Source of the DNA: Dictyobacter arantiisoli | GTDB taxonomy: Bacteria > Chloroflexota > Ktedonobacteria > Ktedonobacterales > Ktedonobacteraceae | DNA: 41,410 nucleotides | Reading direction: 5' to 3' | Assembly: GCF_008326305.1 (NCBI RefSeq) | Contig: NZ_BIXY01000063.1 | Location: forward strand, 1 to 41,410 | Shown here: one piece after another, positions 1,352-34,164 of the stretch | How positions within the stretch are numbered: position 1 is the stretch's first letter | How the letters are laid out: each line of letters starts with the position of its first letter | Program-made: the position numbers and the translations under genes | The notes under the pieces: model-generated | What the model was told of the DNA's origin: nothing | The model's database searches: none | What the model saw: only the letters and a program-made list of their open reading frames with translations

Positions 1352-2417
1352 GTCAGAAAGCAGGAAAGCCCGAAAGCGGGATTACAACGCGGCATTTGTG
1401 TAAATGTTGTGGCCTGGACTGTCGGTCAGAAAGCAGGAAAGCCCGAAAGCGGGATTACAACCTGGCCATCTCCGCCTTTCTCAATCCTTCTTGCGAAAGG
1501 TCAGAAAGCAGGAAAGCCCGAAAGCGGGATTACAACAGTCAGAGACTCCGGCAATGACAAAAACACCTGTGGTCAGAAAGCAGGAAAGCCCGAAAGCGGG
1601 ATTACAACAAGAGAAGAATAAACACGATCAATTTTGTGACCAAACGTCGTCAGAAAGCAGGAAAGCCCGAAAGCGGGATTACAACGTGACGCCTTTTACC
1701 CAATATTTTGCGGTAGGAAAGTCAGAAAGCAGGAAAGCCCGAAAGCGGGATTACAACTTGCGGCAAATAAACCCGTGGCAAAAGTCGCAATTTGTCAGAA
1801 AGCAGGAAAGCCCGAAAGCGGGATTACAACGAATATCGTTTTTAATTTCACCCGCAACCTCATGAGTCAGAAAGCAGGAAAGCCCGAAAGCGGGATTACA
1901 ACACTCGGCTGTCATATGCTGAGAGATTTTGGTTAATGTCAGAAAGCAGGAAAGCCCGAAAGCGGGATTACAACATTAATGATGTGATATCAGGCCCATA
2001 TGGTTGTAGGCGTCAGAAAGCAGGAAAGCCCGAAAGCGGGATTACAACTTTCCCTAGTGCAACAATTGGATGGAGGTTCTCAATGTCAGAAAGCAGGAAA
2101 GCCCGAAAGCGGGATTACAACACCCCGCAAAGGGGACAATACATTGACCAGTCTTCCGTCAGAAAGCAGGAAAGCCCGAAAGCGGGATTACAACACCCCG
2201 CAAAGGGGACAATACATTGACCAGTCTTCCGTCAGAAAGCAGGAAAGCCCGAAAGCGGGATTACAACAAGCTGAAGTAGCCATAACAGATGTCCTTTCTT
2301 TTTCGTCAGAAAGCAGGAAAGCCCGAAAGCGGGATTACAACTTCGGCGGCCTGGTCGTTGAACCAATCGTCGCCAAGCTAGTCAGAAAGCAAGAAAGCCC
2401 GAAAGGAGGATTATAAT
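1352..2417 (+). CRISPR. CRISPR array 1, 15 repeats (type I-D repeat, variant D)
   Basis: Fifteen 37-base repeats and 14 spacers of about 34-39 bases. The repeat begins GTCAGAAAGCAGGAAAG, contains a short hairpin CCCG-AAAG-CGGG, and ends GGGATTACAAC. The last repeat (2381-2417) is degenerate: it has AAGAAAG for AGGAAAG, the hairpin arm is changed to AAAGGAGG, and it ends ATTATAAT, which marks the leader-distal end. Spacers 2122-2157 and 2195-2230 are identical. The array lies upstream of the I-D operon, and the crRNA 5' tag would be ATTACAAC if Cas6 cuts below the hairpin as usual. Peptide-like open frames across this region are repeat artefacts. Confidence 0.97.
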
Positions 2418-2430
2418 GTTTACCTACATG

Positions 2431-2490: not shown

Positions 2491-2668
2491 GCGGGAGGTA
2501 GGTGTACCGACGCCTCTGAGCTCAGCCTCCCGCGCCGCCTGGGAAGCGCGTCGAGGGCATATGGTCGCTCAAAATGGCCTTATGAAAGACAAAATAATGC
2601 CATCAAAAAAGAGCCTCCCGCAAAAGCTACCCTTAACCCGCTTCTTATGCTATACTATAAGCACAGGA
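2491..2668 (+). promoter_or_regulatory. CRISPR leader 2 with extended -10 promoter
   Basis: Near-identical to leader 1, with a few substitutions and changes mainly in the middle around GGGCATATGGTCGCTC. It has the same GCGGGAGG and two CCTCCCGC elements, and the extended -10 TATGC-TATACT (TATACT at 2651-2656) 12 bases before the first repeat of array 2. The close match to leader 1 and identical repeat variant point to a recent duplication of a leader-array unit. Confidence 0.8.
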
Positions 2669-3642
2669 GTCAGAAAGCAGGAAAGCCCGAAAGCGGGATT
2701 ACAACTATTATGTCTCAATTTAAACAGCCCGCTGGATCAGTCAGAAAGCAGGAAAGCCCGAAAGCGGGATTACAACAGTGTGCTGTTTCACGCTCATGAC
2801 CAACTCTTCCTCGTCAGAAAGCAGGAAAGCCCGAAAGCGGGATTACAACATGAAGAATGAAACCGAAGAATGAATATACAATTAGTCAGAAAGCAGGAAA
2901 GCCCGAAAGCGGGATTACAACAACCTGCTTTTAATAGCATATCATGCATGTTATCAGGATCAGAAAGCAGGAAAGCCCGAAAGCGGGATTACAACCCCAG
3001 AAATTATTCCAGGCAAACCATACCGTAGCGTCAGAAAGCAGGAAAGCCCGAAAGCGGGATTACAACAATACGCTTTGTCTTTGTGACGGAAGCGCTTATT
3101 TGTCAGAAAGCAGGAAAGCCCGAAAGCGGGATTACAACACGGAGGGGGTGGACGAATGGCTCCAATAACACCTGCGTCAGAAAGCAGGAAAGCCCGAAAG
3201 CGGGATTACAACTCTATTTTTCCTTTATAGAGATGATAAAAAATTTAGGTCAGAAAGCAGGAAAGCCCGAAAGCGGGATTACAACCGGCAACGGTTCCGA
3301 TGCCGGGCACATACGTCCCGTCAGAAAGCAGGAAAGCCCGAAAGCGGGATTACAACCGGCAACGGTTCCGATGCCGGGCACATACGTCCCGTCAGAAAGC
3401 AGGAAAGCCCGAAAGCGGGATTACAACGCTCAATCCGTTGATAACGTACATTTGTGCTACTCCGTCAGAAAGCAGGAAAGCCCGAAAGCGGGATTAAAAC
3501 GGCATGACACAGGCCACACCCAGCACCGATCATCGTCAGAAAGCAGGAAAGCCCGAAAGCGGGATTAAAACGGCATGACACAGGCCACACCCAGCACCGA
3601 TCATCGTCAGAAAGCAGGAAAGCCCGAAAGCGGGATTATTAT
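2669..3642 (+). CRISPR. CRISPR array 2, 14 repeats (variant D)
   Basis: Fourteen 37-base repeats and 13 spacers with the same repeat variant as array 1. The repeat at 2959 begins ATCAG instead of GTCAG. Repeats at 3464 and 3535 end ATTAAAAC instead of ATTACAAC. The final repeat (3606-3642) ends ATTATTAT and runs into the promoter of the WYL gene. Two spacers are duplicated in tandem: 3286-3319 equals 3357-3390, and 3501-3534 equals 3572-3605. The second duplication carries the ATTAAAAC repeat variant with it, showing copying of a whole repeat-spacer unit. Confidence 0.97.
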
Positions 3643-3650: not shown

Positions 3651-3688
3651 GGCATTTGTTGGATGAGGATTTTAGGGGGAGTGTAGCT

Positions 3689-4807
3689 ATGGCTGTTGAT
3701 GACTATTCCGGGCGTGAGTCTTTTCCTACTCATGGCAATGTTGAGCGTATCTTTCGTCTTTTGCAATTTCTTTTGGCGAATGAGTGTACACGGTACGATG
3801 TCTTTGATCATCTTGCTTCTTACTACAAAACAAATTCTCCGGCCTCACAACAATCCTCATCCTCCTCTCGCAGTGCAGATAAGCTGTTCGAGCGCGATCT
3901 TCATTTTTTGAAGGAGCAGGGATTTGAAATTCAGAAGGTGCGCAAGCGAAATCAGCCTGTTCGTTATCATATTGAAAGAGGTTCTGGGCCAGGAACGACC
4001 TTTCTTTTCACGGAGCAGGAAGTAGATAGTCTGGCCCTGCTGTATAATATGTTTGCCGATCCTGCACGCTTTTCTAAGGACGATCCTTCTCTTCCGCCTC
4101 TTCCGTTTCCATCCGCCTCACAAGAACATCCCTTTACACAGGATATTCTGACGCTCATTGAAAAGTTTGTCTCGACACTACCTCCCGAACAGCGTCAGCA
4201 TTTTGAACGTTGGGTACAGAAGCCGTATCTGTACTTTCATCTCTCTACAGTGGTTGATTATCTTCCTCATCGCGTCACCATCGACAGCATTATTCAAGCA
4301 ATTTCGCATCGCCAACAAATCGCGTTTGATTATATGCCAGCCCAGGGCCAGCAGGATGTGGTGCCACATGCACAGATTGATCCTTATTACATCATCTATA
4401 TGGAGGGTCATTTTTATCTTATTGCTTACAACCATAAAGTGAGTTCGTTTCTCGAATATCGGATTGATCGCATTGAAGGAAAGACGCTCAAAGAGCAGCC
4501 GACTATGATTGATAGTCAGCGTCGCCGCCATCCACTGGAATTCCGTTTCTGGCTGGATGCCAGTCTTTCTAAACAAGGCTTGAGCCAACGTTGGTTAACA
4601 CAAACGATTGAGGAAGAACAGACCTATCAAGATCCACGCGGGCAGGAGCGCAAGCGGGTCTTAGTGCATGCCACTGCTTATAGCGAGTGGCGTGTTCTTC
4701 AGCAAATCCTCAAATATGGCGAAAAAGCAGAAATCATAGATCCCCCTCACTTACGCGCTCGTATGAAACGTGTGATACAGCAAATGTCTTCTCTCTATGC
4801 CGAGTAA
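3689..4807 (+). CDS. WYL-domain transcriptional regulator of the I-D locus
   Basis: A 372-residue protein. The N-terminal part (about 15-100) looks like a winged helix-turn-helix domain: IFRLLQFLLANECTRYDVFDH resembles a DeoR/HTH_11-type motif but contains 21 residues in total with some loop. A WYL domain follows at about 195-265, with HFYLIAY matching the W-Y-L strand (F replaces W) and EYRIDRIEG as its exit strand. A C-terminal extension with VLQQILKYGEKAEI is typical of the family. The ATG at 3689 is preferred over an in-frame ATG at 3656 because GGGGGAG lies just upstream of it. In Synechocystis a WYL protein (Sll7009) represses a I-D locus, so a similar role here is likely. The WYL pocket may bind a nucleic-acid or nucleotide ligand. 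It stands 262 bases upstream of cas10d, so a separate operon promoter may exist in that gap. Confidence 0.85.
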   Translation: MAVDDYSGRESFPTHGNVERIFRLLQFLLANECTRYDVFDHLASYYKTNSPASQQSSSSSRSADKLFERDLHFLKEQGFEIQKVRKRNQPVRYHIERGSGPGTTFLFTEQEVDSLALLYNMFADPARFSKDDPSLPPLPFPSASQEHPFTQDILTLIEKFVSTLPPEQRQHFERWVQKPYLYFHLSTVVDYLPHRVTIDSIIQAISHRQQIAFDYMPAQGQQDVVPHAQIDPYYIIYMEGHFYLIAYNHKVSSFLEYRIDRIEGKTLKEQPTMIDSQRRRHPLEFRFWLDASLSKQGLSQRWLTQTIEEEQTYQDPRGQERKRVLVHATAYSEWRVLQQILKYGEKAEIIDPPHLRARMKRVIQQMSSLYAE

Positions 4808-5069: not shown

Positions 5070-7718
5070 ATGGATGATGTGTCCATTTTCGGTTTTACGT
5101 ATGAGAGTGATGATGCTTCCCGGGTGCTTGGCTTGTATATGCAGCATATTGCCAGTAAAAAATTGTGTGCCTATAAGAGCTTTATTCATACCGGCGGAAA
5201 GATGGGGGAGAGCCTCTGGAGCCATGTGATTAATTTAGTCACCATTGTTGAGAAATTACGGCGCCTGTTTGAACTCACGGAACGAGAAATGTCGTGTCTC
5301 TGTCTGGCTATCACGCTGCATGATATTAATAAACTGTCCGCTTATGGTAAGCAGTCCAATGGGCGTGCGGTAAGCTATGCCAATGCTGCTGTACTGGAAC
5401 ATGTGCGCTCAGAACTACTTGCTCTTCAGGTCGAGCCTTTCTTTCCTGAGTGGGAGCAGTATCTTTTTGACATCAAATACCTGATGGATGCACACCAGGA
5501 GCAGTCGCCGCAGCAATCTCAACACGATGATGCGTTTCTTGATCGCTGCTTGCTTGATCATGATCGCCTGGAAGGGCCTTTGCGCTATCTGATGAAGGTG
5601 GCGGATGTTTCAGATAATGCCCATTCTGGTGATCACCTGCTGACCCATGAGAAGCATATCCGCGATAAGTTCGCTTTCCATTTGAATGCGGGATTGTATG
5701 CCAGCGGTCATCCTGATCACTATCGTTTTATTGGCTATCGTCTCGCTGAACTGCGTGGTCTGCTGACCAATTGTATTCATAACCAGATGGTTGCCTACCT
5801 GCAAGAGCTGTATGGCAAAGATGTTTGTATTGATGTGCTCTATTATCCTGAAGGAGTTGATCTCCTTTTACCCATTACCTTTCCTTTTACTTGGACGGCG
5901 GAGCATCGGGCGGTACTGGCTCAACGTGTGGAGCAGAAAATCGCTAGCATGCAGTTGAAGCAAATTTCACAATTTGTCAAAGCGCGGCCTCATGGGATCA
6001 GCGTGGATACGGCAGCGTTAGAGAGTGGTGCTTCACTGGAAAAGATTTTCTCGCTCATGTATGGCATTGCTGAGGGCAAGATCTATCGCCTGGAATGGCG
6101 AGAACAGCGTGAGGCCCTGGTGCGCAGTGATCTTGAGCTTGCTTTGACCCGTCCAGATCTTTCACCTTTCCTGCAAGAGCGTATTACGGATGCTTTGAGG
6201 AAGCCGCATATTCTCTCTCTGGAAGATGACGTGTTGAAGCGAGGCGAGTTTTTACTGGCATACCGCAATTTCCTGAAAGATCATCAGAGCGCGCAACTGA
6301 GAGCCATAAAGCAGGATGCGTGGGATCGCGCACTGCGACTGTTCGCTGTCCCGGTGGAGTTGGACCCATTGTATGTGGTGATTGATCCCTATCGGCGTGC
6401 GTATTTTCTCGCCGATGATTTGCCACAGATGTCACTGGATGAGATGGAAACAGAAATGCTCGCGGATTTGCACGCGCTTGAGGAGCAATTTCAGGATGTG
6501 ATGACCGTTCGCCAGGGGAAGAAAGCACAGCAAAAGCAGCCTCATGCTGCTCAATCACTTTCTACCAAAGGCGAGGAGAGCGTGTTCACATCGTCCTCTC
6601 TGCGTGACTATCTGGAGCGCAATCTTCGTATCTGGGATAGTGATCCTGATGCGGTGCGCGCAGTTCCGCTTCAGGTAAACAGTTTTCGTGATAATTTACG
6701 GCGCTATGTGGATGCGAAAAGACCGGATGCTCAGTGTTGCTACTGCGGAAGCTCTCTGCGAGCGGAAGAGTGGATGGCTATGCAGGTTCCAGCGAATATC
6801 GGGGTACAAAGTTTTTCTAATCGTTTGGAAGGTGGCAGTTCGCGGGAGCCCAAACGGAATGTCTGTGCGGTGTGTCGGATGCAATTTCTCCTGGAGAAAC
6901 TCTCCTGGCAATCACATAAGGATAAGCATGGCAAAGAATACCTTACTTTCTATCTCCATCTTTTTCCCTATGCCCACTTTACGCAACCATTACTGCTTTC
7001 CTGGTGGCAAAGCGTTCAACATCTCAAACAAGGCAATGAAACTGCTTTATTGATAAATTCACGCGACTACTTATTGCAATGGTATGACCATAAGGCGTAT
7101 TTCGCAGCATGGCAACAGAGTTATCAGCAGTTTCAGGAAGAGATTAAGGTCCTGCCACGGAGCGTAGAAGGCCTGGGTACGCCTCTCTATTCAGAATTGT
7201 TGAGCAATACGCCTGTTTTGCCGCTGACCGTGAAAGAAACTCACTATGGGCGTGGTTTTTTGTCCGCCCTCGCAAAAACGGCGGTACTGACACGGTGGTT
7301 TGGCTGCCGCATCATCCTGTCACGTTTGCCGACACCGTTGCTCAATTTAGCTGATCAATATCATGGTCAGGAGCCGGTGGCGCTGCTGGCAGAGACAATC
7401 CCGCAATCGATGAGTTGGCTACTCCCGAGCAATGCGTTAACACAGCATGAGGTGCATCGTTTGTGTGAGCGGTTGGCTGCGCTCCATGCTCTGGCTCGGC
7501 TCCTCGCGACCGATGATCAGCAGTTTGATGTTATCATCTCTACCTTCGTTGCGGCGGCGTCTCGTGATCCACTCTCAGCCTACCATGAAGTCGATAGGAT
7601 GATCGAACAGAAAGTAGCACAACGCCGAGGAGGGAAGCCTGAATATCAGGCGATCCAGTTGGCCCGTCTGATCGAACCTGTTTTAGAGAGCTTGCATCCA
7701 GGAGAAGAAATAGCATGA
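5070..7718 (+). CDS. cas10d: Cas10d (Csc3), large subunit of the type I-D effector
   Basis: An 882-residue protein. The N-terminal HD nuclease domain is intact: H52 in SLWSHVIN, H84-D85 in TLHDINKLS, H142 in DAHQE and D169 in KVADVSD. A zinc finger follows with CCYC near residue 555 and CAVC near 600. No GGDD-type catalytic palm motif is visible, as expected for Cas10d, which does not make cyclic oligoadenylate. In type I-D systems Cas10d cleaves DNA with its HD domain while Cas3d acts as helicase. The C-terminus ends (ARLIEPVLESLHPGEE) before the small-subunit-like region that other Cas10d proteins carry; that region seems to be the next gene. The start has a weak ribosome-binding site (GAGG about 15 bases upstream). 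The 4807-5070 gap holds no other gene. Confidence 0.9.
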   Translation: MDDVSIFGFTYESDDASRVLGLYMQHIASKKLCAYKSFIHTGGKMGESLWSHVINLVTIVEKLRRLFELTEREMSCLCLAITLHDINKLSAYGKQSNGRAVSYANAAVLEHVRSELLALQVEPFFPEWEQYLFDIKYLMDAHQEQSPQQSQHDDAFLDRCLLDHDRLEGPLRYLMKVADVSDNAHSGDHLLTHEKHIRDKFAFHLNAGLYASGHPDHYRFIGYRLAELRGLLTNCIHNQMVAYLQELYGKDVCIDVLYYPEGVDLLLPITFPFTWTAEHRAVLAQRVEQKIASMQLKQISQFVKARPHGISVDTAALESGASLEKIFSLMYGIAEGKIYRLEWREQREALVRSDLELALTRPDLSPFLQERITDALRKPHILSLEDDVLKRGEFLLAYRNFLKDHQSAQLRAIKQDAWDRALRLFAVPVELDPLYVVIDPYRRAYFLADDLPQMSLDEMETEMLADLHALEEQFQDVMTVRQGKKAQQKQPHAAQSLSTKGEESVFTSSSLRDYLERNLRIWDSDPDAVRAVPLQVNSFRDNLRRYVDAKRPDAQCCYCGSSLRAEEWMAMQVPANIGVQSFSNRLEGGSSREPKRNVCAVCRMQFLLEKLSWQSHKDKHGKEYLTFYLHLFPYAHFTQPLLLSWWQSVQHLKQGNETALLINSRDYLLQWYDHKAYFAAWQQSYQQFQEEIKVLPRSVEGLGTPLYSELLSNTPVLPLTVKETHYGRGFLSALAKTAVLTRWFGCRIILSRLPTPLLNLADQYHGQEPVALLAETIPQSMSWLLPSNALTQHEVHRLCERLAALHALARLLATDDQQFDVIISTFVAAASRDPLSAYHEVDRMIEQKVAQRRGGKPEYQAIQLARLIEPVLESLHPGEEIA

Positions 7719-8179
7719 GAGAGTTAAAAAATTTGGCGACATACGCCGCACAGCATCGTATTCGTGGTCGGTCGTATAAGCGGAACTCATTGCTCAAGCC
7801 GTTGAACATTATTCTCGATGAATTGGATCGTTGCCCGGATACACGGGATGAGAACGAGATCGAGTTTGTAAAGACGAGCAGTAAAGGTTTGATTACCGAT
7901 CATGTCAAGCGCATTGCTCGTGGTGTCCATACTGAGGATATCTATCAGTATGTCGATGCCTTTTTTGATGAGGTTCTTGAACAAGCTCATGCTGGGAATG
8001 CAAATTTCTTGTTACAGCGTGAACGCTCTATCCGCAGCGCGTATGTCGTCTATATGCGCCAGGCTCTGGCTGAGATTTTTGTTGCCAGAGGCCAGGCGAA
8101 GGATGCCGATGAAGCCCAACAAGCATTGGATCGTCCCGAAGCGGATGCTGCGGATGGCGTAGAGGATGAAAGCGCCTAG
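7715..8179 (+). CDS. Probable stand-alone Cas11d small subunit
   Basis: A 154-residue, mainly helical, charged protein with no recognised catalytic motif. Its ATG overlaps the cas10d stop (ATGA at 7715-7718) and has its own AGGAGAAG ribosome-binding site at about 7700, so it is a real, translationally coupled gene. In characterised type I-D systems the small subunit Cas11d is translated from an internal start inside the 3' end of cas10d. This protein sits exactly at that point, has a matching size, and LLQRERSIRSAYVVYMRQAL resembles a helix of that C-terminal region. I infer a Cas11d encoded separately from a shortened Cas10d. An unrelated accessory protein cannot be excluded. The acidic tail (ADAADGVEDESA) is low complexity. 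Confidence 0.6.
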   Translation: MRELKNLATYAAQHRIRGRSYKRNSLLKPLNIILDELDRCPDTRDENEIEFVKTSSKGLITDHVKRIARGVHTEDIYQYVDAFFDEVLEQAHAGNANFLLQRERSIRSAYVVYMRQALAEIFVARGQAKDADEAQQALDRPEADAADGVEDESA

Positions 8180-8283
8180 ATCTTTTTTCTGCCTGCCCTG
8201 ATTGCATGCATGGGTATGCACTCCATCATGGGCATGTGTTTGATGATTGAATTGTGAAAAGAAAAGAAAAGAAGGAATGACCT

Positions 8284-9300
8284 GTGAATATTACTGAACA
8301 ATTACCTGCACTCAACGCGTATCGTCAGTATCTTCAGCCACATTATCAGCGCTTCCCGAGTGGTCGCTATGCCAACCTGTTAGTTGTGCGTAAAACGCTA
8401 TCGGAGACCATTTTTCGTACTGAAGGCAGTGGGGAAGGGCTTTCCAAAGAGTTGGTGACCGCCGGAATGCAAGCGTCAAATCGCCATGCCATCCGTCGCG
8501 TGGTGATCAGTAAGCGCAAACAGACTGCGGTCGAACGGCGCGTTGGGCGTGAACTATTGCGGGAGCATGAACTCCTCAAGACGGTCATGGTAAATAAAAC
8601 ACCACAGTTATGTGCTCTGAATACCAATGCTCCCTGTGGAAAATGTATCGATTGTATGTTGTATGGTTATGCAGTTGGTGGTGGTGGAGCACAGAAAAGT
8701 CGTGTGATGACTGATGATGCCTATTCTATTGGTCCGGTGGCCCAGATAACCTCTAAGCGAACATTTAATGCCACCTTCGATAATGGTACGATGCGCAATC
8801 CATTGACCAATGAAGCCTCTACCTCGATCAATGAAGATGAGTATGTGCTGCCCGAGACACATTTTCTCGATATTGAGACGCTCAAAGATGTAACGCTGGG
8901 TGAGTTGCAATATGTCATCGGGAACATTGCTCGCAGTAGCCGTTATGGAGCGATCAGCAGCCGCCTCGGTCGTGTACGCAATACGCTTGCGGCGATTATC
9001 TTCAGTGACACAGAGATCTTCTCGAATCTGGAATTGACCCAGTCTGTATATGATACATTGAAAGGCGAGCGCAAAGAGCTCGATTTTCCTTTATCAGATG
9101 CTGATTTGGAGCAGGCGGTGCGAGACTCCACTTCTGCCTTACTGGCTCGTGTGGTGGGTCGTGAACCCATCGTGGTTGATGGGGAGCCACTTCAGCGTAT
9201 CCTGAATGAAACGATTGCTCTCTATCGGAAACCTGAGGATGTGAAGGGGTTCTTACAAGAGATTGAACAGTCATACAGTAGTGGTATGGAAGCAAAATAA
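8284..9300 (+). CDS. csc2: Csc2 (Cas7d), backbone subunit of type I-D
   Basis: A 338-residue protein that forms the crRNA-binding filament of the I-D effector. A zinc-binding cluster is visible at C110 and C118-C121-C124 (APCGKCIDCMLYG), characteristic of Csc2, followed by the glycine stretch YAVGGGGAQKSRV and FNATFDNGTMRNPLTNEA, where the thumb and crRNA contacts lie in the family. The start is GTG at 8284, preceded by AAGAAGGAATG. The length is normal for the family. A 104-base gap separates it from the small-subunit gene, the largest in the effector part of the operon, and the csc1 start follows 14 bases after the stop. Confidence 0.93.
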   Translation: MNITEQLPALNAYRQYLQPHYQRFPSGRYANLLVVRKTLSETIFRTEGSGEGLSKELVTAGMQASNRHAIRRVVISKRKQTAVERRVGRELLREHELLKTVMVNKTPQLCALNTNAPCGKCIDCMLYGYAVGGGGAQKSRVMTDDAYSIGPVAQITSKRTFNATFDNGTMRNPLTNEASTSINEDEYVLPETHFLDIETLKDVTLGELQYVIGNIARSSRYGAISSRLGRVRNTLAAIIFSDTEIFSNLELTQSVYDTLKGERKELDFPLSDADLEQAVRDSTSALLARVVGREPIVVDGEPLQRILNETIALYRKPEDVKGFLQEIEQSYSSGMEAK

Positions 9301-9314
9301 CCAGAGGAAGAGCA

Positions 9315-10058
9315 GTGACTGCCATGACGATACAGATCTATCGCGCTCATCTCACGCTGATGGAGTCCGTGTACTTTGCCAGCCGTGAAGTTGGTATCTT
9401 GTACGAGAGTGAACCGCTCATTGGCAATTATGCGCTGACGTATGCTTTAGGTTTTTGTGCTTCTCCGTATGATTGGAGTGGCCCGCCGCGTTATCAACAG
9501 GATCTAGGGCCACTCAATGCGCGTGGCATTTATGTGACGCCCGCCACGTTTTTGCCTGGAATGTTACGGTATACGTTTAGCCAGTTTAATGCGCAATCAG
9601 ATAGTTATTACTCTCGTTTTGATCAGAATGCGATCGCAACTGAACGGGACAAAAAAGCCCGGGCTGCGAATTTTCCGCAAGCAGGGAAGCTTCGGATGCT
9701 GGGTGCTGAGAGCCTCGCCACTTTTTACGTGATCACACGAGAAGAGGAATGCCCCTTTCTTCCTTCCTATATCCGTCTTGGGAAATTCATGAGTAAAGCT
9801 CGTGTGGAATGGCAACCATTGCCGCTTGTCTCCCAACAGCCTGAAGCTGCCGACAAAGACATAGGATTTATGCTCAATGCGGCCGATTTATCACCGGCGC
9901 TTGTGTCTACGCTGAGAGCCTTTTCCATTTATAATATTCATCCTGCACCTTTGTTAAGTCATTGTCGCCTGTCAGGATTGTTCTGGCAAGCTCGCGATGC
10001 TGATGGTGCGTCAGTGTATTTGCCTGCGGATATGTCTTATGGTGTGGTCGATTTGTAG
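9315..10058 (+). CDS. csc1: Csc1 (Cas5d), crRNA 5'-handle binding subunit
   Basis: A 247-residue RAMP-type protein. It matches Csc1 by the N-terminal strand IQIYRAHLTLMESVYFASRE followed by a helix with YALTYALGFC, the segment GIYVTPATFLPGMLRYT, and its position between csc2 and cas3. In type I-D it binds the crRNA 5' tag and takes part in PAM recognition together with Cas10d. The start is either GTG at 9315, with AGAGGAAGAG just upstream, or ATG at 9324; the spacing favours 9315. It ends 18 bases before cas3d. Confidence 0.9.
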   Translation: MTAMTIQIYRAHLTLMESVYFASREVGILYESEPLIGNYALTYALGFCASPYDWSGPPRYQQDLGPLNARGIYVTPATFLPGMLRYTFSQFNAQSDSYYSRFDQNAIATERDKKARAANFPQAGKLRMLGAESLATFYVITREEECPFLPSYIRLGKFMSKARVEWQPLPLVSQQPEAADKDIGFMLNAADLSPALVSTLRAFSIYNIHPAPLLSHCRLSGLFWQARDADGASVYLPADMSYGVVDL

Positions 10059-10076
10059 CACATGGAGGAGTAGACC

Positions 10077-12599
10077 ATGTTTACTGTAGAGCTTTTGCCC
10101 CAGGCTGAATATCGCTGGTTGGGAGATAACCCCTCGGAGAAGACCTTCCCTCGTGAGGAGGGTCTTTTCCCTTTGTATCATCAATGGCGCACATATTGTT
10201 CTGAAGCAGCAATTATTGTCAATACGCATACGACCGGCACAGGAAAGACGAAGGCCGCTTTGTTGCGTCTCCTCAAGCGTGTTCAGGGCAAAAAAATGCT
10301 CAGTCCGCAACAGGATGATGTGCTGCTGATTGCCCCTACTAACGAATTGTTACAGCAGCATGCTGATGATGCTCGAGAGTTTTGTCGGATCAATGATCTT
10401 CCGTATCGTGTCGTCCCGATTACAAAAGATCGGCTGCGAGAATACAAAAATCAGCCGGGATTTAGTGAAGCATCGGTACGAACCAGTGCGGCTTTTCACT
10501 ATCTTTTGAACAACCCGAGCATGCTCAAACATGATCGAGAGAATCGCGCCACGATTTATGTCGTGAATCCTGACATTTTCTACTATGCCATCTATTACTG
10601 TTACAATCCCTTTGATAGCGCAGCCCTGGCGAATGACGTTCTGAACCGTTTCAATTATGTTATTGTGGATGAGTTTCATTACTATGATGCCAAGCAGTTA
10701 GCCTCGTTCCTTTTCTACATGAAGCTCTCCCACCACTATCACTATATCGAGAGTGCGAGGAAGAAACGGCAGTTCTGTATTTTGACTGCGACACCGCAAG
10801 CGCAAGTTGAACAATACCTCAACAATCTTGGCGTCCCCATTGAATGGATCAGGCCAGGTGAAATTGCGCCTGACGATCAGGCACTGGTCGAGCCACTCCA
10901 GGCGCTGGCACCGGTACATTTGCATATCTCTAATACAGAGGAGTTGCAAGAGAAGCATGGGATTGGTGGCTTGCTGAATTTGATTCGGCAGCAACAAGCA
11001 ACCATAAAACGCTGGCTTTTACAGGAACCAGTACAAGACGGTGCGATTATCTCCAGCTCATTAGGTCTTATCAGTAACATTCATGCTGCATTATGTAAGG
11101 AGATTCCGACCGACTTGATTGGACGTGTCACAGGCTCACAATCCAAGACGGATCGGGATGTCGCCAGATTTAAGCGCCTGATCCTGGCCAGTCCCACCGT
11201 CGATATTGGCTATAACTTTGTGCGTGCGGAGAAAAAGAAGCGCCAGAACATCGACTTCTTGTTCTTTGATGCTGCATGTGATGATGAATTTATTCAACGG
11301 CTTGGACGTGCTGCTCGTGTTTTAGCTGCAGAGCAGAAAGACTATCCGAGCACGGTCTGGGCAGTTATTGATCCTACCAGTTATCGGGGCTTGCAAGAAA
11401 TCGCAGGCATGACGGTGAGTCGAGAGCACCTGGGAGAACTGGTTCGCTGTATGCCGCGCAAACATGATCTCTATGCCTACCTCAAAACGGGGGCTATCCT
11501 TGAGCTTTTTCGTCCCGTGCTTGGTTTTCGGAAAGGACTCTCGCTTGAGGAACAATCCACCATGGATATGTTTCTCGAAGATATGCATCAGCTTTTTACT
11601 TCTCCCGTTGAGCCGGCGCTGAAGCCCTGGCAGTATTCTCAGATGAAACGCTTGCTTGATGCCTTCAGTCAAAGCCAAAAGCACTATGGGAGGCAACGCA
11701 TTTTTCCAGCGGAAATCTTTGAGTATTTGCCGCAGGTACTGCAAGGGAGGTTGCAGCAAGCACAGATCCCGTGGCAGCATCCTGAAGCAGAACAGGGTAT
11801 GGCGCTGATCTGTCAGCGTTGGATGGATGCCCGCTCAAAAGTGAGTGCTGAAGTGCGAGGCAGTGTGCAAGTAGCGTGCCGCTGGCTGCAAGATGACCTG
11901 CGAAATTACTTTAAAGAACAGGCTCGTTTCAGTTTTCGTGATGGCTTTCAGCCCCCTCTGGCCCTGATTGCTGATCCCCAGAAGCTTCACTCGGATCAGC
12001 GTGTGAGTACCTATAATGCATTGCATATTATCCGCTACTATCATGCTCGTTATTATGAGACACTGCAGGAGTGGAAACAAGCGACTGGTGAAAGCAGATC
12101 CAATGGTACATCCATGGCTGATAGCGATCAAGAGATTGTGGCAGGAACTGATGTTCAGGTTTATTGTCATCTTAGCAAACTTCGTCCGCAACCTTTGCGG
12201 CTCCATTTGTTATTAGATGCACGAGATGAGACGCAAGACTCCTGGGAAGAACGCTGTGCTTATCGCGTCACCGCTCTCCATGGATTGAACGTGACGACTG
12301 ACGACGATCATGGTCTGGATGAGAGTATGCGTACCCTCTTTCAAGCGCAATTTGTTCCTGCCTTTGTGACGAGTGCTGACGCAAGCAGCCACACCATGCG
12401 CGCCCTGCACCGCTTGCATCAAAAGGCACGCATTTTGACATTGCCGCTTACAATTATGTTTGGCGATGGTCGCGAAGTTAATTATCAAGCTGTCCTCGGG
12501 ACAATGGCTTTTCATGTCTATGCAGGGATACCTGCCTGGGCGATGCGCAAAGATCGACGAAAAACGCAGCAGGATGACGATGAGTTATTGCTCTGCTAA
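10077..12599 (+). CDS. cas3d: Cas3d, type I-D helicase without HD domain
   Basis: An 840-residue superfamily 2 helicase. Walker A is HTTGTGKT at residues 51-58, the DExH box is VIVDEFHYYD near 195-204, motif III is LTATPQ near 237, and motif VI is QRLGRAAR near 407. No HD nuclease domain precedes the helicase core, which fits subtype I-D, where the HD activity is on Cas10d. It should unwind target DNA recruited by the Csc1/Csc2/Cas10d complex. The C-terminal third (from about 480) has no recognised motif and probably holds the accessory domain of Cas3. A ribosome-binding site, TGGAGGAG, lies just before the ATG. It is 14 bases from cas6. Confidence 0.92.
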   Translation: MFTVELLPQAEYRWLGDNPSEKTFPREEGLFPLYHQWRTYCSEAAIIVNTHTTGTGKTKAALLRLLKRVQGKKMLSPQQDDVLLIAPTNELLQQHADDAREFCRINDLPYRVVPITKDRLREYKNQPGFSEASVRTSAAFHYLLNNPSMLKHDRENRATIYVVNPDIFYYAIYYCYNPFDSAALANDVLNRFNYVIVDEFHYYDAKQLASFLFYMKLSHHYHYIESARKKRQFCILTATPQAQVEQYLNNLGVPIEWIRPGEIAPDDQALVEPLQALAPVHLHISNTEELQEKHGIGGLLNLIRQQQATIKRWLLQEPVQDGAIISSSLGLISNIHAALCKEIPTDLIGRVTGSQSKTDRDVARFKRLILASPTVDIGYNFVRAEKKKRQNIDFLFFDAACDDEFIQRLGRAARVLAAEQKDYPSTVWAVIDPTSYRGLQEIAGMTVSREHLGELVRCMPRKHDLYAYLKTGAILELFRPVLGFRKGLSLEEQSTMDMFLEDMHQLFTSPVEPALKPWQYSQMKRLLDAFSQSQKHYGRQRIFPAEIFEYLPQVLQGRLQQAQIPWQHPEAEQGMALICQRWMDARSKVSAEVRGSVQVACRWLQDDLRNYFKEQARFSFRDGFQPPLALIADPQKLHSDQRVSTYNALHIIRYYHARYYETLQEWKQATGESRSNGTSMADSDQEIVAGTDVQVYCHLSKLRPQPLRLHLLLDARDETQDSWEERCAYRVTALHGLNVTTDDDHGLDESMRTLFQAQFVPAFVTSADASSHTMRALHRLHQKARILTLPLTIMFGDGREVNYQAVLGTMAFHVYAGIPAWAMRKDRRKTQQDDDELLLC

Positions 12600-12613: not shown

Positions 12614-13627
12614 ATGTCACAAGATTCTTTTCTCCCTGTACAGACAGACGGAGTACCTGCGCGAGAAGGTGAGCTTTTCTCCTTGCTCCTACGTTTACAT
12701 GCATTAGATGCAGGGGAAGTGGCCGCAAACTCGGGACCACACATACAAGCAGCCTTTCTGGATATTGTTCGACAGAGTAATCCGACGCTGTCCGAGTGGC
12801 TGCATACACCAAATCAGCGCCGCCCCTACACGGTCAGCCTGCTCAATGGACTTCATCCTTCGTCCTCCGCGCCGTTGGCTGACGTGGATATGGCAGCATC
12901 GCATGGAAAGATACCGGTGAAAGCAGGACAGATTTTTTGGTTGCGCATAACCCTGCTTGATGCTACCATTTTTTCTTCATTTTTCCAGTATCTCTTACTC
13001 AAAGCACAAACGCTCACCATACGCATCGGTGCGGTGCAGTTTTCGATTGGTCGTCTGATCACAGCCCCAGAGCCCGGCAATACTTCATCATCCTGGGCAG
13101 CGTATTCCTCGTTCAGCCAATTGCGATCAGTACAGTCAGCCGGAAAACACTACACCTTCGAATTCAGGACACCAACGGCCTTTAGTAAAGGACAAAAAAT
13201 GTGGGGAAAGCAACTCTTTCTTTTTCCTACCCCCGGTATGGTCTTTGAAAACCTTGCTCGGCAATGGGACTCCTTCGCACCGGTCTCAGCACGCCTGGCG
13301 AGCGCGGACCTGACGCCGAAATCGATTGAATTGTGGTGTGATGAACAAATGGTTGTGACGCACTATGCCCTTTCTACCAGCTATCTTTCGGCAAGTCGTT
13401 TTGGACAGATTGGCTTTCACGGGCAGATTACCTATGAAGTGAAAGGCAATCCAGTTGCACCGATTGCGACCTGGCTTCCTTCGCTTGCCCGCTTCGCCTT
13501 TTTCTCTGGCATTGGCTACAAAACAACTATGGGAATGGGCCAGGCGCGGTGGGTATCCCGCGTGAATGGTGAGCCTGCTGTGAGAGGAGAGGAGCCGAAA
13601 ATGGTAGAAGGGCAACCGAATACATGA
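12614..13627 (+). CDS. cas6: Cas6 CRISPR RNA endonuclease
   Basis: A 337-residue RAMP protein with the C-terminal glycine-rich signature GIGYKTTMGMGQARWV at about residues 297-312, preceded by LARFAFFSG, typical of Cas6. It is expected to cut the repeat 3' of the CCCG/CGGG hairpin, leaving an 8-base tag ATTACAAC or ATTATAAC. It is the only Cas6 in the window, so it should serve all five related arrays, and possibly supply crRNAs to the Cmr complex. Catalytic residues vary in this family and cannot be named from sequence alone. AAAGGAAATAAT provides a ribosome-binding site. The gene overlaps the next one by four bases (ATGA). Confidence 0.9.
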   Translation: MSQDSFLPVQTDGVPAREGELFSLLLRLHALDAGEVAANSGPHIQAAFLDIVRQSNPTLSEWLHTPNQRRPYTVSLLNGLHPSSSAPLADVDMAASHGKIPVKAGQIFWLRITLLDATIFSSFFQYLLLKAQTLTIRIGAVQFSIGRLITAPEPGNTSSSWAAYSSFSQLRSVQSAGKHYTFEFRTPTAFSKGQKMWGKQLFLFPTPGMVFENLARQWDSFAPVSARLASADLTPKSIELWCDEQMVVTHYALSTSYLSASRFGQIGFHGQITYEVKGNPVAPIATWLPSLARFAFFSGIGYKTTMGMGQARWVSRVNGEPAVRGEEPKMVEGQPNT

Positions 13628-14205
13628 GGCAACCACCCGATACCATTGCACTATCCTATCTCAACGCCCTGGAATACTGCCCACGCCGTTTCTATTATGA
13701 GTTCGTCGAGGGAGAGATGCTGGCAAACGAGTTTGTCCTGGAAGGCACGCTTCAGCATCAGCATGCCGACGAAGCAGGGCAGAAGCAGGAAGATGGCGAG
13801 ATACGTATCAGCCGACTGTATCTGTGCAGTGAGAACCTCCACATCGCTGGCTTTGATCCCTACATTGGCTATCTCCACAGTTCCGCGTATGGGCGTCCTG
13901 CACTCGCTCTGGACCTGATGGAAGAGTTTCGTCCCCTGATTGTCGACTCAGTGGTCATTGCCCTGCTCAATAATCGGATGCTCTCTCCAGACGATTTCCA
14001 ACAAGAAATGGGAGCGTATCGATTGAAGAAGGAGCCGAGAAAGATTTTTCTGACAAATTTGGAAGAAAGATTCAATGAGGAAGTTACGCATCCAGTCTTT
14101 GCCTATAAAACAAAATACAAACATTGTATAGAATTGCAGGCCAGACTGGTTGCAAAATACCTGACAGGAGAAATTCCTGCCTATATACCATTCGTCATGA
14201 GATAA
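13624..14205 (+). pseudogene. Cas4/Cas1 deletion chimera
   Basis: The 193-residue frame is a fusion of two incomplete proteins. Residues 1-77 are the N-terminus of Cas4 (IALSYLNALEYCPRRFYYE, with the first iron-sulfur cysteine at 19, then GTLQHQHADE and LYLCSENLHIAGF). From about residue 77 it is the C-terminus of Cas1 (GFDPYIGYLHSSAYGRPAL, DLMEEFRPLIVD, IELQARLVAKYLTGE). H85 and D97/E100 match the Cas1 metal-site histidine and acidic residue, but the first Cas1 glutamate is absent, as are the RecB-type catalytic motif and the three C-terminal cysteines of Cas4. About 1 kb has been lost in frame. The junction lies near GGCTTTGAT (13849-13857), a plausible microhomology. Gene order cas6-cas4-cas1-cas2 is normal for I-D. 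The product should lack integrase and nuclease activity. Confidence 0.88.
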
Positions 14206-14224: not shown

Positions 14225-14515
14225 ATGCCTCTCGGCCAGACAACCTGTTATATTATCGCGTATGATATCCCAAATGATCGCAGACGGACGAAGGTGCATA
14301 AAATTCTCTGTGGATTTGGAGCATGGACGCAATTTTCACTGTTCGAGTGCTTTCTCTCCAAAAAGGAGTTAGTCCAACTAAAAGCAAAACTAGCGCAACA
14401 CCTCGACGAGCAACAAGATCATGTGCGTTTTTATCCTTTATGTACCACCTGTCTGAGTAAAGTTGAAACCGTAGGTGGAAAATTGCCAGAAGAAGATACT
14501 GTCTTCATCATCTAA
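14225..14515 (+). CDS. cas2: Cas2 adaptation protein
   Basis: A 96-residue ferredoxin-like protein of normal length. The first strand CYIIAYDIPNDRRRTKVHKI carries the conserved aspartate D14; FSLFECFLSKKEL and HVRFYPLCTTC are the other family strands. Cas2 dimers bridge two Cas1 dimers during spacer integration. It appears intact although its partner Cas1 is truncated in the gene just upstream (19-base gap), so it may be unused or may work with a Cas1 encoded elsewhere. Leader 3 begins only 15 bases after the stop. Confidence 0.93.
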   Translation: MPLGQTTCYIIAYDIPNDRRRTKVHKILCGFGAWTQFSLFECFLSKKELVQLKAKLAQHLDEQQDHVRFYPLCTTCLSKVETVGGKLPEEDTVFII

Positions 14516-14530: not shown

Positions 14531-14708
14531 GCGGGAGGTAGGTGTACCGTTGGTCTTGAGCTGAGCCTCCCGCGTGGCTTCAGAGGCTGGCTCAAGGCAC
14601 TATATCCCTAAAAAGCCCTCAAAAGAAAGACAAATTTAGCCACCAAAACAGGACCTCCCGCAAAATACCCCCTCAACCCGCTTCTTATGCTATAATATAA
14701 GAGCAGGG
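14531..14708 (+). promoter_or_regulatory. CRISPR leader 3 with extended -10 promoter
   Basis: Contains GCGGGAGG (14531-14538), CCTCCCGC (14566-14573) and CCTCCCGC (14654-14661), then TGC-TATAAT (TATAAT at 14691-14696) 12 bases before the first repeat. It is diverged from leaders 1 and 2 in the middle (CTTCAGAGGCTGG, AAAAGCCCTCAAAAG) but almost identical to leader 4. The first 20 and last 50 bases are the most conserved parts across all five leaders. Confidence 0.82.
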
Positions 14709-17700
14709 GTCAGAAAGAGGAAGAGCCCGAAAGCGGGATTACAACATTTGATATCAATATCTTTGGTGGCCTCTCGATTTTTGTCAGAAAGAGGAAGAGC
14801 CCGAAAGCGGGATTACAACTATTATCCATTTTGGCTATGGGACGGCAGAAGGTTGTCAGAAAGAGGAAGAGCCCGAAAGCGGGATTACAACACGATAGTT
14901 GCGTGCCTCGCGGAATTGGATATCTAGTCAGAAAGAGGAAGAGCCCGAAAGCGGGATTACAACTCGCGTATAACGCATCATATTGAGCTTGAGTCACAGT
15001 GTGTCAGAAAGAGGAAGAGCCCGAAAGCGGGATTACAACACAGAAGAAGGCACGATGGCTGGCAAGGTGATAGAGTCAGAAAGAGGAAGAGCCCGAAAGC
15101 GGGATTACAACGGTTCGATTAAGCCCATTTTGATGAATCTCCTTAAAGTCAGAAAGAGGAAGAGCCCGAAAGCGGGATTACAACACCAGATTTTTCTGCA
15201 TGCATCTTCCCTATCGCTTGAAGTCAGAAAGAGGAAGAGCCCGAAAGCGGGATTACAACGTGCGATCTACTTTCTTTGCCAGGGTGCAATTGGGTCAGAA
15301 TGAGAGAAAGCCCGAACGCGGGATTACAACCACCTATGATCCGGGCACGCATAAAGTGGAAACAAAGTCAGAATGAGAGAAAGCCCGAACGCGGGATTAC
15401 AACGTGCTATTCTCAGGCACCGCCGTTGAAGAATGGAGTCAGAATGAGAGAAAGCCCGAACGCGGGATTATAACCATCAAAGAGACCTTCTATGCCTTGA
15501 CTGGCTTCTTTTGTCAGAATGAGAGAAAGCCCGAACGCGGGATTATAACCATGTTAGCCAGGCGGGAGGCAAGCCAATCGAGCTCGTCAGAATGAGAGAA
15601 AGCCCGAACGCGGGATTATAACATAACCAAAGCCTACAAGACTTCCTCGTCGCTACACAGTCAGAATGAGAGAAAGCCCGAACGCGGGATTATAACGGGT
15701 AGTTCTTTACCTGCCGCCTGGCGGTATCTTTGTCAGAATGAGAGAAAGCCCGAACGCGGGATTATAACAATGAAAATTGAGATCGCTCTTCCGGGGTCCG
15801 TAACGTCAGAATGAGAGAAAGCCCGAACGCGGGATTACAACGTGTATCTGTATCTCCCAACACCTACATCTCCAGAGTCAGAATGAGAGAAAGCCCGAAC
15901 GCGGGATTACAACGAGTCGGATGAGGCGGATGGAGCGTCTGACTCCCAGATCAGAATGAGAGAAAGCCCGAACGCGGGATTACAACTTATTCTACTCATA
16001 CTTTCATTTACCGCCGCTTCGTCAGAATGAGAGAAAGCCCGAACGCGGGATTATAACCCAGATCCGGTTGTGGTATCAAAGGTGGTATCAGCGCGTCAGA
16101 ATGAGAGAAAGCCCGAACGCGGGATTATAACGATCAGATACAACCATGACGTACTGAGTCACAGCGAGGTCAGAATGAGAGAAAGCCCGAACGCGGGATT
16201 ATAACATGCCAATCAGCAAGGCATCTCTATTTTTCATCAGGTCAGAATGAGAGAAAGCCCGAACGCGGGATTATAACATGCCAATCAGCAAGGCATCTCT
16301 ATTTTTCATCAGGTCAGAATGAGAGAAAGCCCGAACGCGGGATTATAACAAAAGAGGATGGTAGACATTCTTATTGACATAGTAGTCAGAATGAGAGAAA
16401 GCCCGAACGCGGGATTATAACAACTTACCACGGTACACCTGACCTGCCAGGACATTGGTCAGAATGAGAGAAAGCCCGAACGCGGGATTATAACACCCAT
16501 GGCACACATCCTTGCTCTCAGGCAGAAACAGTCAGAATGAGAGAAAGCCCGAACGCGGGATTATAACATTCCATCCACAGAAGATGCTCTCATCAGGTTA
16601 GTTGTCAGAATGAGAGAAAGCCCGAACGCGGGATTATAACTATTCTTTTTCCGTCAGTACACTTCTTAGTGACAGGTCAGAATGAGAGAAAGCCCGAACG
16701 CGGGATTATAACGGCCCAGCGATACCGTCGAGGATGTAGCGCAACACGTCAGAATGAGAGAAAGCCCGAACGCGGGATTATAACACCGTACCGGCGCTTT
16801 CAATGCCTAGTGCCTGGCTCGTCAGAATGAGAGAAAGCCCGAACGCGGGATTATAACACGGGAGTGCCAACGCCGAACTGTTCGCTCACCGCGTCAGAAT
16901 GAGAGAAAGCCCGAACGCGGGATTACAACAATTCTCTTGAATCGCCTGTAGAATCTCCTCTGGTAAAGTCAGAATGAGAGAAAGCCCGAACGCGGGATTA
17001 CAACGTCCAGCAGGTATGTATTCCCGCCGGGTTGCAATGCGTCAGAAAGAGAGAAAGCTCGAACGCGGGATTACAACATCTGGCCGCTGTAATGATGTGA
17101 GACGCTGCTTGAGCGTCAGAAAGAGAGAAAGCCCGAACGCGGGATTACAACTCCTACACAGTGCGAGATCTATGCATTTGTTCTTTCCGTCAGAAAGAGA
17201 GAAAGCCCGAACGCGGGATTACAACAAACCCCGCGACATAGTTGATATCGTAATTACGCTCGTCAGAAAGAGAGAAAGCCCGAACGCGGGATTACAACGA
17301 GTCGTGTCTGGGAGACGCATGCCTCTTTGGATGGTCAGAAAGAGAGAAAGCCCGAAAGCGGGATTACAACATTCGGAATGGAAATTGATCCTGATGCTGC
17401 ATCTTTGAGTCAGAAAGAGAGAAAGCCCGAACGCGGGATTACAACTGGAGTGGAGACGCCGGCAGCAACCGGCGTCTCTTGGTCAGAAAGAGAGAAAGCC
17501 CGAAAGCGGGATTACAACTCTTGTGTCTGTTTACCGCTGGAAAAGCAGCCAGAGTCAGAAAGAGGAAGAGCCCGAAAGCGGGATTACAACATCTATAGAT
17601 ATCACCTTCTGTTGCAGGGCGAGGGAGTCAGAAAGAGGAAGAGCCCGAAAGCGGGATTACAACTGCCGGGTTGCGTATCCGCAATACATTGGCAACAGCG

Positions 17701-18010
17701 GTCAGAAAGAGGAAGAGCCCGAAAGCGGGATTACAACATTCTCGATAATATGACGCTTGATGGCCTGTTGTGTCAGAAAGAGGAAGAGCCCGAAAGCGGG
17801 ATTACAACATTCTCGATAATATGACGCTTGATGGCCTGTTGTGTCAGAAAGAGGAAGAGCCCGAAAGCGGGATTACAACACATACATGAGTCGCTCATAA
17901 TCTTTATCCGTAACGTCATAAAGAGGAAGAGCCCGAAAGCGGGATTACAACAGCGCGTTTATTTTACCAGTAACGGCAAGGGAAAAGTCAGAAAGAGGAA
18001 CAGCCCGAGC
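14709..18010 (+). CRISPR. CRISPR array 3, 46 repeats, mosaic of repeat variants
   Basis: Forty-five full 37-base repeats plus a truncated last one (17987 to about 18010), with 45 spacers. Repeats 1-8 are variant A (GTCAGAAAGAGGAAGAG..., loop AAAG). Repeats 9-32 are variant B (GTCAGAATGAGAGAAAG..., loop AACG), alternating in blocks between ATTACAAC and ATTATAAC ends. Repeats 33-39 are variant C (GTCAGAAAGAGAGAAAG...), with loop AACG except AAAG at 17334 and 17482. Repeats 40-46 are variant A again. Tandem duplicate spacers are 16206-16240/16278-16312 and 17738-17771/17809-17842. The spacer at 17446-17481 has a 10-base inverted repeat. The repeat at 17041 has CTCG in the stem (a wobble pair), and that at 17915 begins GTCATAAAG. 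Confidence 0.97.
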
Positions 18011-19570: not shown

Positions 19571-21148
19571 GTCAGAATGAGAGAAAGCCCGAACGCGGGA
19601 TTATAACTTTCATGTCTCGAAGACGTTGGACAAAACCTTTGGGGGTCAGAATGAGAGAAAGCCCGAACGCGGGATTATAACTTTCTGTATCTATCTTGAG
19701 ATCGAATGTTTTGTTGGTCAGAATGAGAGAAAGCCCGAACGCGGGATTATAACAATGCAGATTCATAACCTTTATCTCTTGCGTTCATTTTGTCAGAATG
19801 AGAGAAAGCCCGAACGCGGGATTATAACGTGTCACCACATAATCTTTTGTATTTTTCCGTATGACTGTCAGAATGAGAGAAAGCCCGAACGCGGGATTAT
19901 AACTTTTGACAAACAATACGAACGGTTATGATTCAAAATGCGTCAGAATGAGAGAAAGCCCGAACGCGGGATTATAACGTTTGCAATCCTCACCTTGCCA
20001 CTGACCAGGCTGGTGTCAGAATGAGAGAAAGCCCGAAAGCGGGATTATAACAATACCAACACACAACTTTAATTTTGGATCGTACTGAGTCAGAATGAGA
20101 GAAAGCCCGAACGCGGGATTATAACCGGCAGCCTATCCTATCCAACGCGAGGGGAAAACGGTCAGAATGAGAGAAAGCCCGAACGCGGGATTATAACAAT
20201 CAAGCGATCATGCTCAGGAAACAGAGCACTCAGTGTCAGAATGAGAGAAAGCCCGAACGCGGGATTATAACAACATAGATTGCTACGGATTCTGTTGTGT
20301 ACTTGAGTCAGAATGAGAGAAAGCCCGAACGCGGGATTATAACCTCGTTTCTCCGCATACGTTACATCGAATAATCCACGTCAGAATGAGAGAAAGCCCG
20401 AACGCGGGATTATAACAGACAGAAGGGGATGCTGTACTGCCAGTTCTCTCGTGTCGTCAGAATGAGAGAAAGCCCGAACGCGGGATTATAACTATCAAAT
20501 TAGTGGGGACAAAAAAGGCAATATTGAGTCAGAATGAGAGAAAGCCCGAACGCGGGATTATAACTTTTAAATCTATCCGATATTCTCCAGGAGACAATAG
20601 TCAGAATGAGAGAAAGCCCGAACGCGGGATTATAACATGACCAGAGCACGCTCAGGGTGCAGTAACTCCACATCGGTCAGAATGAGAGAAAGCCCGAAAG
20701 CGGGATTATAACTGGTCTGTTTGGTGTGTATTTTATACAAAATGCATGTCAGAATGAGAGAAAGCCCGAAAGCGGGATTATAACAGCATAGTGTGACGGG
20801 AGTTGCTCAATAGCACGCGGTCAGAATGAGAGAAAGCCTGAAAGCGGGATTACAACCTCTGCCTAGCAACCACGAAAAAAGGAGATCGAGAAGTCAGAAA
20901 GAGGAAGAGCCCGAAAGCGGGATTATAACGACCGCTGTGCGAGCGTCCACCTCTTGCTCTCTAAGTCAGAAAGAGGAAGAGCCCGAAAGCGGGATTATAA
21001 CAGCTGGTTGAGTAGCGCCTGGTCCCGTTGTGTGCTTGTGTCAGAAAGAGGAAGAGCCCGAAAGCGGGATTACAACGCCGCATCACCTGATGGCACCAGC
21101 TGATCTGTTGTGTCAGAATAAGGGAAAGTCTGAAAGCGGGATTATAAC
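19571..21148 (+). CRISPR. CRISPR array 4, 22 repeats
   Basis: Twenty-two 37-base repeats and 21 spacers. Repeats 1-15 are variant B with ATTATAAC ends (repeat 7 has the AAAG loop). Repeats 16-18 keep the variant B start but carry AAAG loops. Repeats 19-21 are variant A (GTCAGAAAGAGGAAGAG). The last repeat (21112-21148) is degenerate (GTCAGAATAAGGGAAAGTCTG), marking the leader-distal end. The order B then A from the leader matches part of array 3, so both arrays share history. Array 4 ends 51 bases before the 3' end of the convergent TIR-TPR gene. Confidence 0.97.
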
Positions 21149-25438: not shown

Positions 25439-25547
25439 GTCAGAATGAGGGAAAGCCCGACCACGGGATTAGAACTCTTCAGTTCTTCCGTCAACTTGAT
25501 AAGCGCGGTCGTCAGAATGAGGGAAAGCCCGACCACGGGATTAGAAC
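25439..25547 (+). CRISPR. CRISPR array 5, two repeats and one spacer (variant E)
   Basis: Two identical 37-base repeats at 25439-25475 and 25511-25547 around one 35-base spacer. The repeat starts GTCAGAATGAGGGAAAG, keeps the CCCG/CGGG stem but has loop ACCA, and ends ATTAGAAC, a variant not seen in the other arrays. A full leader directly precedes it, so it is a genuine minimal array, either newborn or shrunken. Confidence 0.85.
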
Positions 25548-32647: not shown

Positions 32648-32689
32648 AGATTCCCTCTATTTCTTCTATTGACACATCTAAATCTATTC

Positions 32690-33769: not shown

Positions 33770-34161
33770 TCGGCTTGCTCTCCCTCGTTTATACTATCGC
33801 TGGTATCAACATCCAGCAGGGATTGTGCGAAGCGTTTGTACCAGAGCAAAGCGTCTAGAACGCGCTGGGTGAGATAGATATATTCGATTAGATCGGCCTT
33901 CTGAGCGGCTATTAAGAGTTGCTCACCATCTTTCTGCCCAACGGCCGTGGCCAGGTCTTTCAGAAATTGATCGAGCATTGTTTTGTTTTCTTTGCGTGAC
34001 GCGACAAAAAAGAGCGCCTGTACCAATCCGGCGGAATGTATCAGGATCGGCAGTTTATGAGCGATCACGCCATAGCTTTTCGCGTTGTCGTCACCCTTTT
34101 GGCTGATCTCAAGCACCTGCTGATAGATATGTGCCGCATCGCGTTGATCTCGTGTTTGCAT
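33766..34161 (-). CDS. cmr5: Cmr5, type III-B small subunit
   Basis: A 131-residue all-helical protein beginning MQTRDQRDAAHIYQQVLEI, with AKSYGVIAHKLPILIHSAGL typical of Cmr5 and a following helix ALFFVASRK. It forms the belly filament of the Cmr complex together with Cmr2. Three bases separate it from the cmr4 stop. Length is usual for the family. Confidence 0.92.
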   Translation of the reverse strand: MQTRDQRDAAHIYQQVLEISQKGDDNAKSYGVIAHKLPILIHSAGLVQALFFVASRKENKTMLDQFLKDLATAVGQKDGEQLLIAAQKADLIEYIYLTQRVLDALLWYKRFAQSLLDVDTSDSINEGEQAE

Positions 34162-34164
34162 GAT

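What the first reader, a model, noticed from the sequence alone, without database searches (positions are those of the whole stretch)
13624..14205. In-frame deletion has fused cas4 to cas1, disabling both
The protein switches at residue 77-78 from Cas4 N-terminus (YCPRRFYYE, HIAGF) to Cas1 C-terminus (DPYIGYLH, DLMEEFRPLIVD). It keeps the Cas1 histidine and acidic residues but lacks the Cas1 glutamate, the Cas4 RecB motif and the last three Cas4 cysteines. The reading frame survived and cas2 is intact. Unlike known full-length Cas4-Cas1 fusions, 193 residues cannot hold either enzyme. Five arrays thus sit beside a probably dead integrase, so spacers must be old or supplied by another Cas1. A retained role as structural or regulatory protein is also conceivable, because the frame has not decayed.
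Basis: partly seen in the sequence, partly recalled or inferred. Interest (0 to 1): 0.8.

Follow-up and report, generated by a model that had tools for sequence, protein, structure and literature searches.

The report
Recent deletion fused cas4 to cas1
In this bacterium of the Chloroflexota, a deletion of about 1.1 kilobases joined the front of one CRISPR gene (cas4) to the back of the next (cas1), very probably ending the cell's ability to record new viruses while the defence genes and about 88 stored virus memories remain; it is a clean but ordinary kind of gene loss.

Summary
ORF 13624-14205 (193 aa) is a Cas4 N-terminus (residues 1-77) joined in frame to a Cas1 C-terminus (about residue 76 onward) inside an otherwise intact type I-D locus. 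It lacks the Cas4 nuclease motifs, three of four Cas4 cysteines, and about 246 N-terminal Cas1 residues including the catalytic Glu. Relatives in the same family carry separate full-length cas4 and cas1, with 1.07-1.24 kb between the two breakpoint positions. Both breakpoints sit at a Gly-Phe/Leu/Tyr codon pair, where intact relatives share 2-7 nt (up to GGCTTTG), so a microhomology deletion is likely. The missing middle and any other Cas1 are absent from the 7.2-Mb assembly. No other genome in the order (47) or a phylum sample (400) has this architecture, so it is lineage-specific, not a conserved mini-protein. The fragments show no accelerated evolution, the repeats are nearly perfect and five leaders are conserved, so the loss is probably recent. 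I infer that new spacer acquisition is dead while I-D and III-B interference could still use old spacers. An assembly error cannot be excluded without reads but is unlikely. Broken adaptation modules are known; interest is modest.

The parts
13624..14205 (+). Chimeric ORF, Cas4 N-terminal fragment fused in frame to Cas1 C-terminal fragment, 193 aa
13624..13854 (+). Cas4-derived part (residues 1-77); keeps Cys19 and a His in the LEGxLxH motif, loses the RecB Asp, the ExK motif and the last three Cys
13849..13855 (+). Junction GGCTTTG, ambiguous because both parents probably carried it; the microhomology shared at the homologous spots in intact relatives is 2-7 nt
13849..14205 (+). Cas1-derived part (residues 76-193); keeps His85, Asp97 and Glu100/101, lacks the N-terminal domain and catalytic Glu
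14225..14515 (+). cas2, intact, 96 aa
12614..13627 (+). cas6; its stop overlaps the chimera's ATG (ATGA)
5070..12599 (+). type I-D interference genes cas10d, separate cas11d-like ORF, csc2, csc1, cas3'
3656..4807 (+). WYL-domain regulator upstream of the I-D operon
1352..2417 (+). CRISPR array 1, 15 repeats, 14 of them identical
2669..3642 (+). CRISPR array 2, 14 repeats
14709..17951 (+). CRISPR array 3, 45 repeats in blocks of repeat variants
19571..21148 (+). CRISPR array 4, 22 repeats
25439..25547 (+). CRISPR array 5, 2 repeats, with leader
14531..14708 (+). Leader of array 3; homologous leaders precede arrays 1, 2, 4 and 5
31523..39747 (-). type III-B Cmr operon with a Card1-like nuclease; no cas1, cas2 or cas6 of its own, so probably a co-user of the I-D arrays (inferred)

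Best explanation
A single recent deletion of roughly 1.1-1.2 kb, probably by slippage or end joining at a short repeat (GGCTTTG or part of it) shared by cas4 and cas1, removed the 3' part of cas4 and the 5' two thirds of cas1 and left one in-frame ORF. Shown: the chimera, the intact order in relatives, the absence of another Cas1 or of the missing piece in the assembly, and the absence of decay. Inferred: the 193-aa product has neither Cas4 nor Cas1 activity, so the locus cannot take up new spacers. The I-D (and probably III-B) effectors still process and use the spacers collected before the deletion.
For: Family, structural and relative alignments place both halves and the gap. Ten intact cas4-cas1 pairs in relatives have 1065-1237 nt between the homologous points, with 2-7 nt of sequence shared there; in the best case (G009, 7 nt) a random join would reach this in 0.06% of trials. 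There is no second Cas1, no other intact Cas4 and no orphan middle fragment in the 7.2-Mb, 97%-complete assembly. The architecture is absent from 46 other genomes of the order and from a 400-genome phylum sample. Private amino-acid changes are 13 in the chimera versus 16 in G014, against 227 versus 226 in the other cas genes. Differences from G014 concentrate at third codon positions in both halves (64-65%). Repeats are near perfect and all five leaders are conserved. In type I-G Cas4/1, the single changes E101A and E375A abolish the Cas4 and Cas1 nuclease activities (PMC10504553); the equivalents fall in the missing block (inferred from the alignment).
Against: No strain of the same species with intact genes could be compared; the closest homologues are about 75% identical, so the parental junction and the date are inferred. 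Three of the ten relatives share only 2-3 nt at the homologous points. The genome is a draft and no reads are held. A few residues that are invariant in relatives have changed in the Cas1 part (3 of 64) and in cas2 (4 of 46), slightly more than in most other taxa. That may be early relaxation or just a longer branch.
Confidence: 0.85

Rival explanations
1. Assembly or mixed-population artefact: the cell has intact cas4 and cas1 and the contig collapsed or chose a minority deletion variant.
For: Draft assembly of 256 contigs; the window is one whole contig next to highly repetitive arrays; no read data available.
Against: The shared sequence at the junction is probably no more than about 7-8 nt, far below usual assembly word sizes (general knowledge). 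The missing middle is on no other contig. The junction lies in unique coding sequence, more than 800 nt from the nearest array.
Confidence: 0.08
2. The chimera is a retained functional protein, for example a dominant-negative or regulatory partner of Cas2, or of Cas4/Cas1 supplied in trans, that limits adaptation.
For: The frame is intact, the start overlaps cas6 (ATGA), and residues are conserved. The Cas1 C-terminal half contains helices used in Cas1 assembly (general knowledge).
Against: Found in one genome only. Conservation is explained by a recent origin. There is no partner Cas1 in the genome. Structure prediction gave only pLDDT 41, although the intact-Cas1 control was also poor (60 overall and low in the same C-terminal region), so this test is inconclusive.
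Confidence: 0.05
3. The chimera still supports some spacer integration on its own with Cas2.
For: His85, Asp97 and Glu100 of the Cas1 active-site region remain.
Against: The Cas1 Glu, the N-terminal domain and about two thirds of the enzyme are missing. No increase in spacer length at the leader end, as reported for Cas4 loss (PMC10212523), is detectable (lowest p 0.13).
Confidence: 0.01

Closest known systems
Full-length Cas4-Cas1 fusions (Cas4g/Cas1g, NF049935; Geobacter GsCas4/1, PDB 7mi4; Methanosarcina MbCas4/1)
   Same: Same order of parts, Cas4 N-terminus then Cas1 C-terminus in one chain; best scoring family model (212 bits)
   Different: Those are about 550 aa with both active sites. 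Here the block corresponding to GsCas4/1 residues 84-438 is absent, and the join arose independently by deletion
Separate Cas4d and Cas1d of type I-D systems in the same family of Chloroflexota (e.g. G014, G009, G024)
   Same: Neighbouring cas6, cas4, cas1 and cas2 genes; 54-75% identity in each half
   Different: Relatives have full-length genes
Natural loci with truncated Cas1, e.g. Streptococcus mutans UA159 type I-C (PMC9522601)
   Same: A CRISPR locus thought non-functional because of a truncated Cas1
   Different: Different subtype; there a truncated Cas1, here a cas4-cas1 chimera
CRISPR-Cas systems without an adaptation module (type VII, III-G and III-H; PMC12669027)
   Same: Effectors without working Cas1-Cas2
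   Different: Those subtypes lack the module as a rule and type VII arrays have degenerate repeats; here the loss is lineage-specific and repeats are near perfect

Membership tests
[quoted passage not shown]
   TIGR03174, TIGR03158, TIGR03159 and TIGR03157 above cut-off
[quoted passage not shown]
   cas6 and cas2 present; cas4 and cas1 only as fragments in one ORF. This complement is typical, not defining: some studied I-D loci lack one or two of these genes (PMC10212523), so the locus stays type I-D
functional Cas4-Cas1 fusion (Cas4g/Cas1g) | both domains complete, score above NF049935 cut-off of 560 bits | tested here: not met
   212 bits, best stretch at profile positions 423-546 of 546 plus one other stretch
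active Cas1 integrase | catalytic Glu-His-Asp set and N-terminal beta domain | tested here: not met
   His and acidic residues present, Glu and N-terminal domain absent
active Cas4 nuclease | RecB Asp, Glu-x-Lys and four Fe-S cysteines | tested here: not met
   only the first cysteine remains
conserved protein family of its own | same architecture in several species | tested here: not met
   no other full-length match in 47 order and 400 phylum genomes
loss-of-function deletion | no spacer acquisition | not testable with these tools
   needs culture or in vitro assay

The most novel reading that the evidence does not exclude
The 193-aa chimera is expressed and has been kept as a dominant-negative or structural cap that binds Cas2, freezing the arrays while interference goes on.
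Probability: 0.04. Interest if true: 0.65.

Novelty: new member of a known kind. Interest (0 to 1): 0.25.

Why it matters
It is an unusually clean natural case of a type I-D locus that lost only adaptation, with a traceable one-step mutation, conserved leaders and 88 spacers kept. It could be used to ask how long effectors and arrays persist once no new spacers can be added, and whether losing adaptation (autoimmunity cost) precedes losing interference. It does not reveal a new type of system.

Tried and rejected
A search for relatives of the whole chimera in genome contigs returned nothing. A 202-aa frame in G331 that looked like another mini-chimera is a frameshifted full-length Cas4-Cas1 fusion. 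A Cas4-like hit on contig C135 is a different protein with apparent membrane segments, matching only the later part of Cas4, not an adaptation Cas4. Spacer length near the leader was tested as a sign of Cas4 loss, with no significant trend. Arrays 3 and 4 matched no record in the phage collection. Structure prediction was inconclusive: chimera pLDDT 41, intact Cas1 control 60 with the same region poorly predicted, both from shallow alignments. No fold search was run on these models because of their low confidence.

Full report
What is there. The ORF at 13624-14205 lies between cas6 and cas2 of a type I-D operon. Its first 77 residues are the beginning of Cas4 (TIGR00372 positions 1-70; PADLOC Cas4d 1e-20). 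From residue 70 or so to the end it is the end of Cas1d (TIGR04093 positions 212-334 of 334, 3e-60). Against the solved Geobacter Cas4/Cas1 fusion the alignment stops at residue 83 and resumes at 439.

How it arose. In relatives of the same family (the phylum is Chloroflexota, because genome G299 of the same phylum carries the same match coordinates as the plasmid of Candidatus Chlorohelix), cas4 and cas1 are separate, adjacent full-length genes. The two points that meet in the window are Cas4 '...(S/A)GF|ADV(V/I)E' and Cas1 '...(V/A)GF|DPYIGYLH'. In ten intact relatives they lie 1065-1237 nt apart and share 2-7 nt, the best being GGCTTTG in G009; the window junction reads GCTGGCTTTGATCCC. As both GF codons are in the same phase, the join keeps the frame automatically. 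A microhomology-mediated deletion is therefore the simplest origin. This is inferred, since the parental sequence is gone.

What is lost. Cas4 loses its catalytic core and three of four cysteines. Cas1 loses its N-terminal domain, the central helices and the invariant Glu (Glu189 in the G014 protein), and keeps His, Asp and Glu of the last motif. In MbCas4/1 the single changes E101A and E375A abolish the Cas4 and Cas1 nuclease activities (PMC10504553). Type I-D adaptation needs Cas1 and Cas2, with Cas4 improving PAM choice (PMC10212523). Spacer integration by this locus is therefore very unlikely.

No rescue in the assembly. Only one Cas1 match exists in the 7.2-Mb draft genome, the fragment itself. 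Searches with the full Cas1 and Cas4 of G014 find no orphan middle piece. An intact cas2 occurs once. Two further small arrays with the same repeat family lie on contig C132, without a Cas1.

Recent, not conserved. The whole architecture appears in no other genome of the order (47 searched) or of a phylum sample (400). Private amino-acid changes in the chimera versus G014 are 13:16, against 227:226 for the other cas genes (Fisher p 0.70). Third codon positions carry 64-65% of the differences in both halves, as many as in csc1 and csc2. Thus nearly all divergence happened while cas4 and cas1 worked. The arrays hold 98 repeats, nearly identical within each block, with five homologous leaders, unlike the degenerate repeats reported for type VII loci that lack adaptation (PMC12669027). 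The intact frame therefore does not require a retained role.

Remaining doubt. An assembly error is unlikely but not excluded. A residual role cannot be excluded by sequence alone, and structure prediction was uninformative because the intact control was also poorly predicted.

Known background. Loci with truncated Cas1 are known (S. mutans UA159, PMC9522601), as are loci lacking adaptation modules (PMC12669027). A cas4-cas1 micro-chimera like this was not found in my paper searches, but those cover only open-licence papers.

Noticed in passing
window 5070-8179: Cas10d (882 aa) ends before its C-terminal domain; the next ORF (154 aa, ATGA overlap) matches the C-terminal part of the Cas10d profile (positions 738-850 of 859), i.e. 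a separately encoded Cas11d-like small subunit. The same split occurs in G014 (L043) and G024 (L044). In type I-D, Cas11d is described as translated from inside cas10d (PMC10212523), so this may be a natural genetic separation worth its own study.
   Followed up: partly
window 14709-17951 and 19571-21148: Arrays 3 and 4 are mosaics of blocks of different repeat variants; the variant at the leader end of array 3 reappears at its trailer end and near the end of array 4, suggesting recombination between arrays.
   Followed up: no
window 1352-3642 and 14709-17951: Five spacers occur as adjacent perfect repeat-spacer duplications.
   Followed up: no
window 30511-30784: Four copies of a different repeat, about 38 nt, 73-77 nt apart, next to the type III-B operon; a second CRISPR-like repeat type or another repeat element.
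   Followed up: no
window 31523-41085 (-): Type III-B Cmr operon with a Card1-like CARF nuclease and a Cas_NE0113 protein carrying a LuxR-type DNA-binding domain.
   Followed up: no
L058 1215-2994: In G331 a full-length Cas4-Cas1 fusion gene is split by a frameshift, another possibly broken adaptation gene in the same phylum.
   Followed up: no
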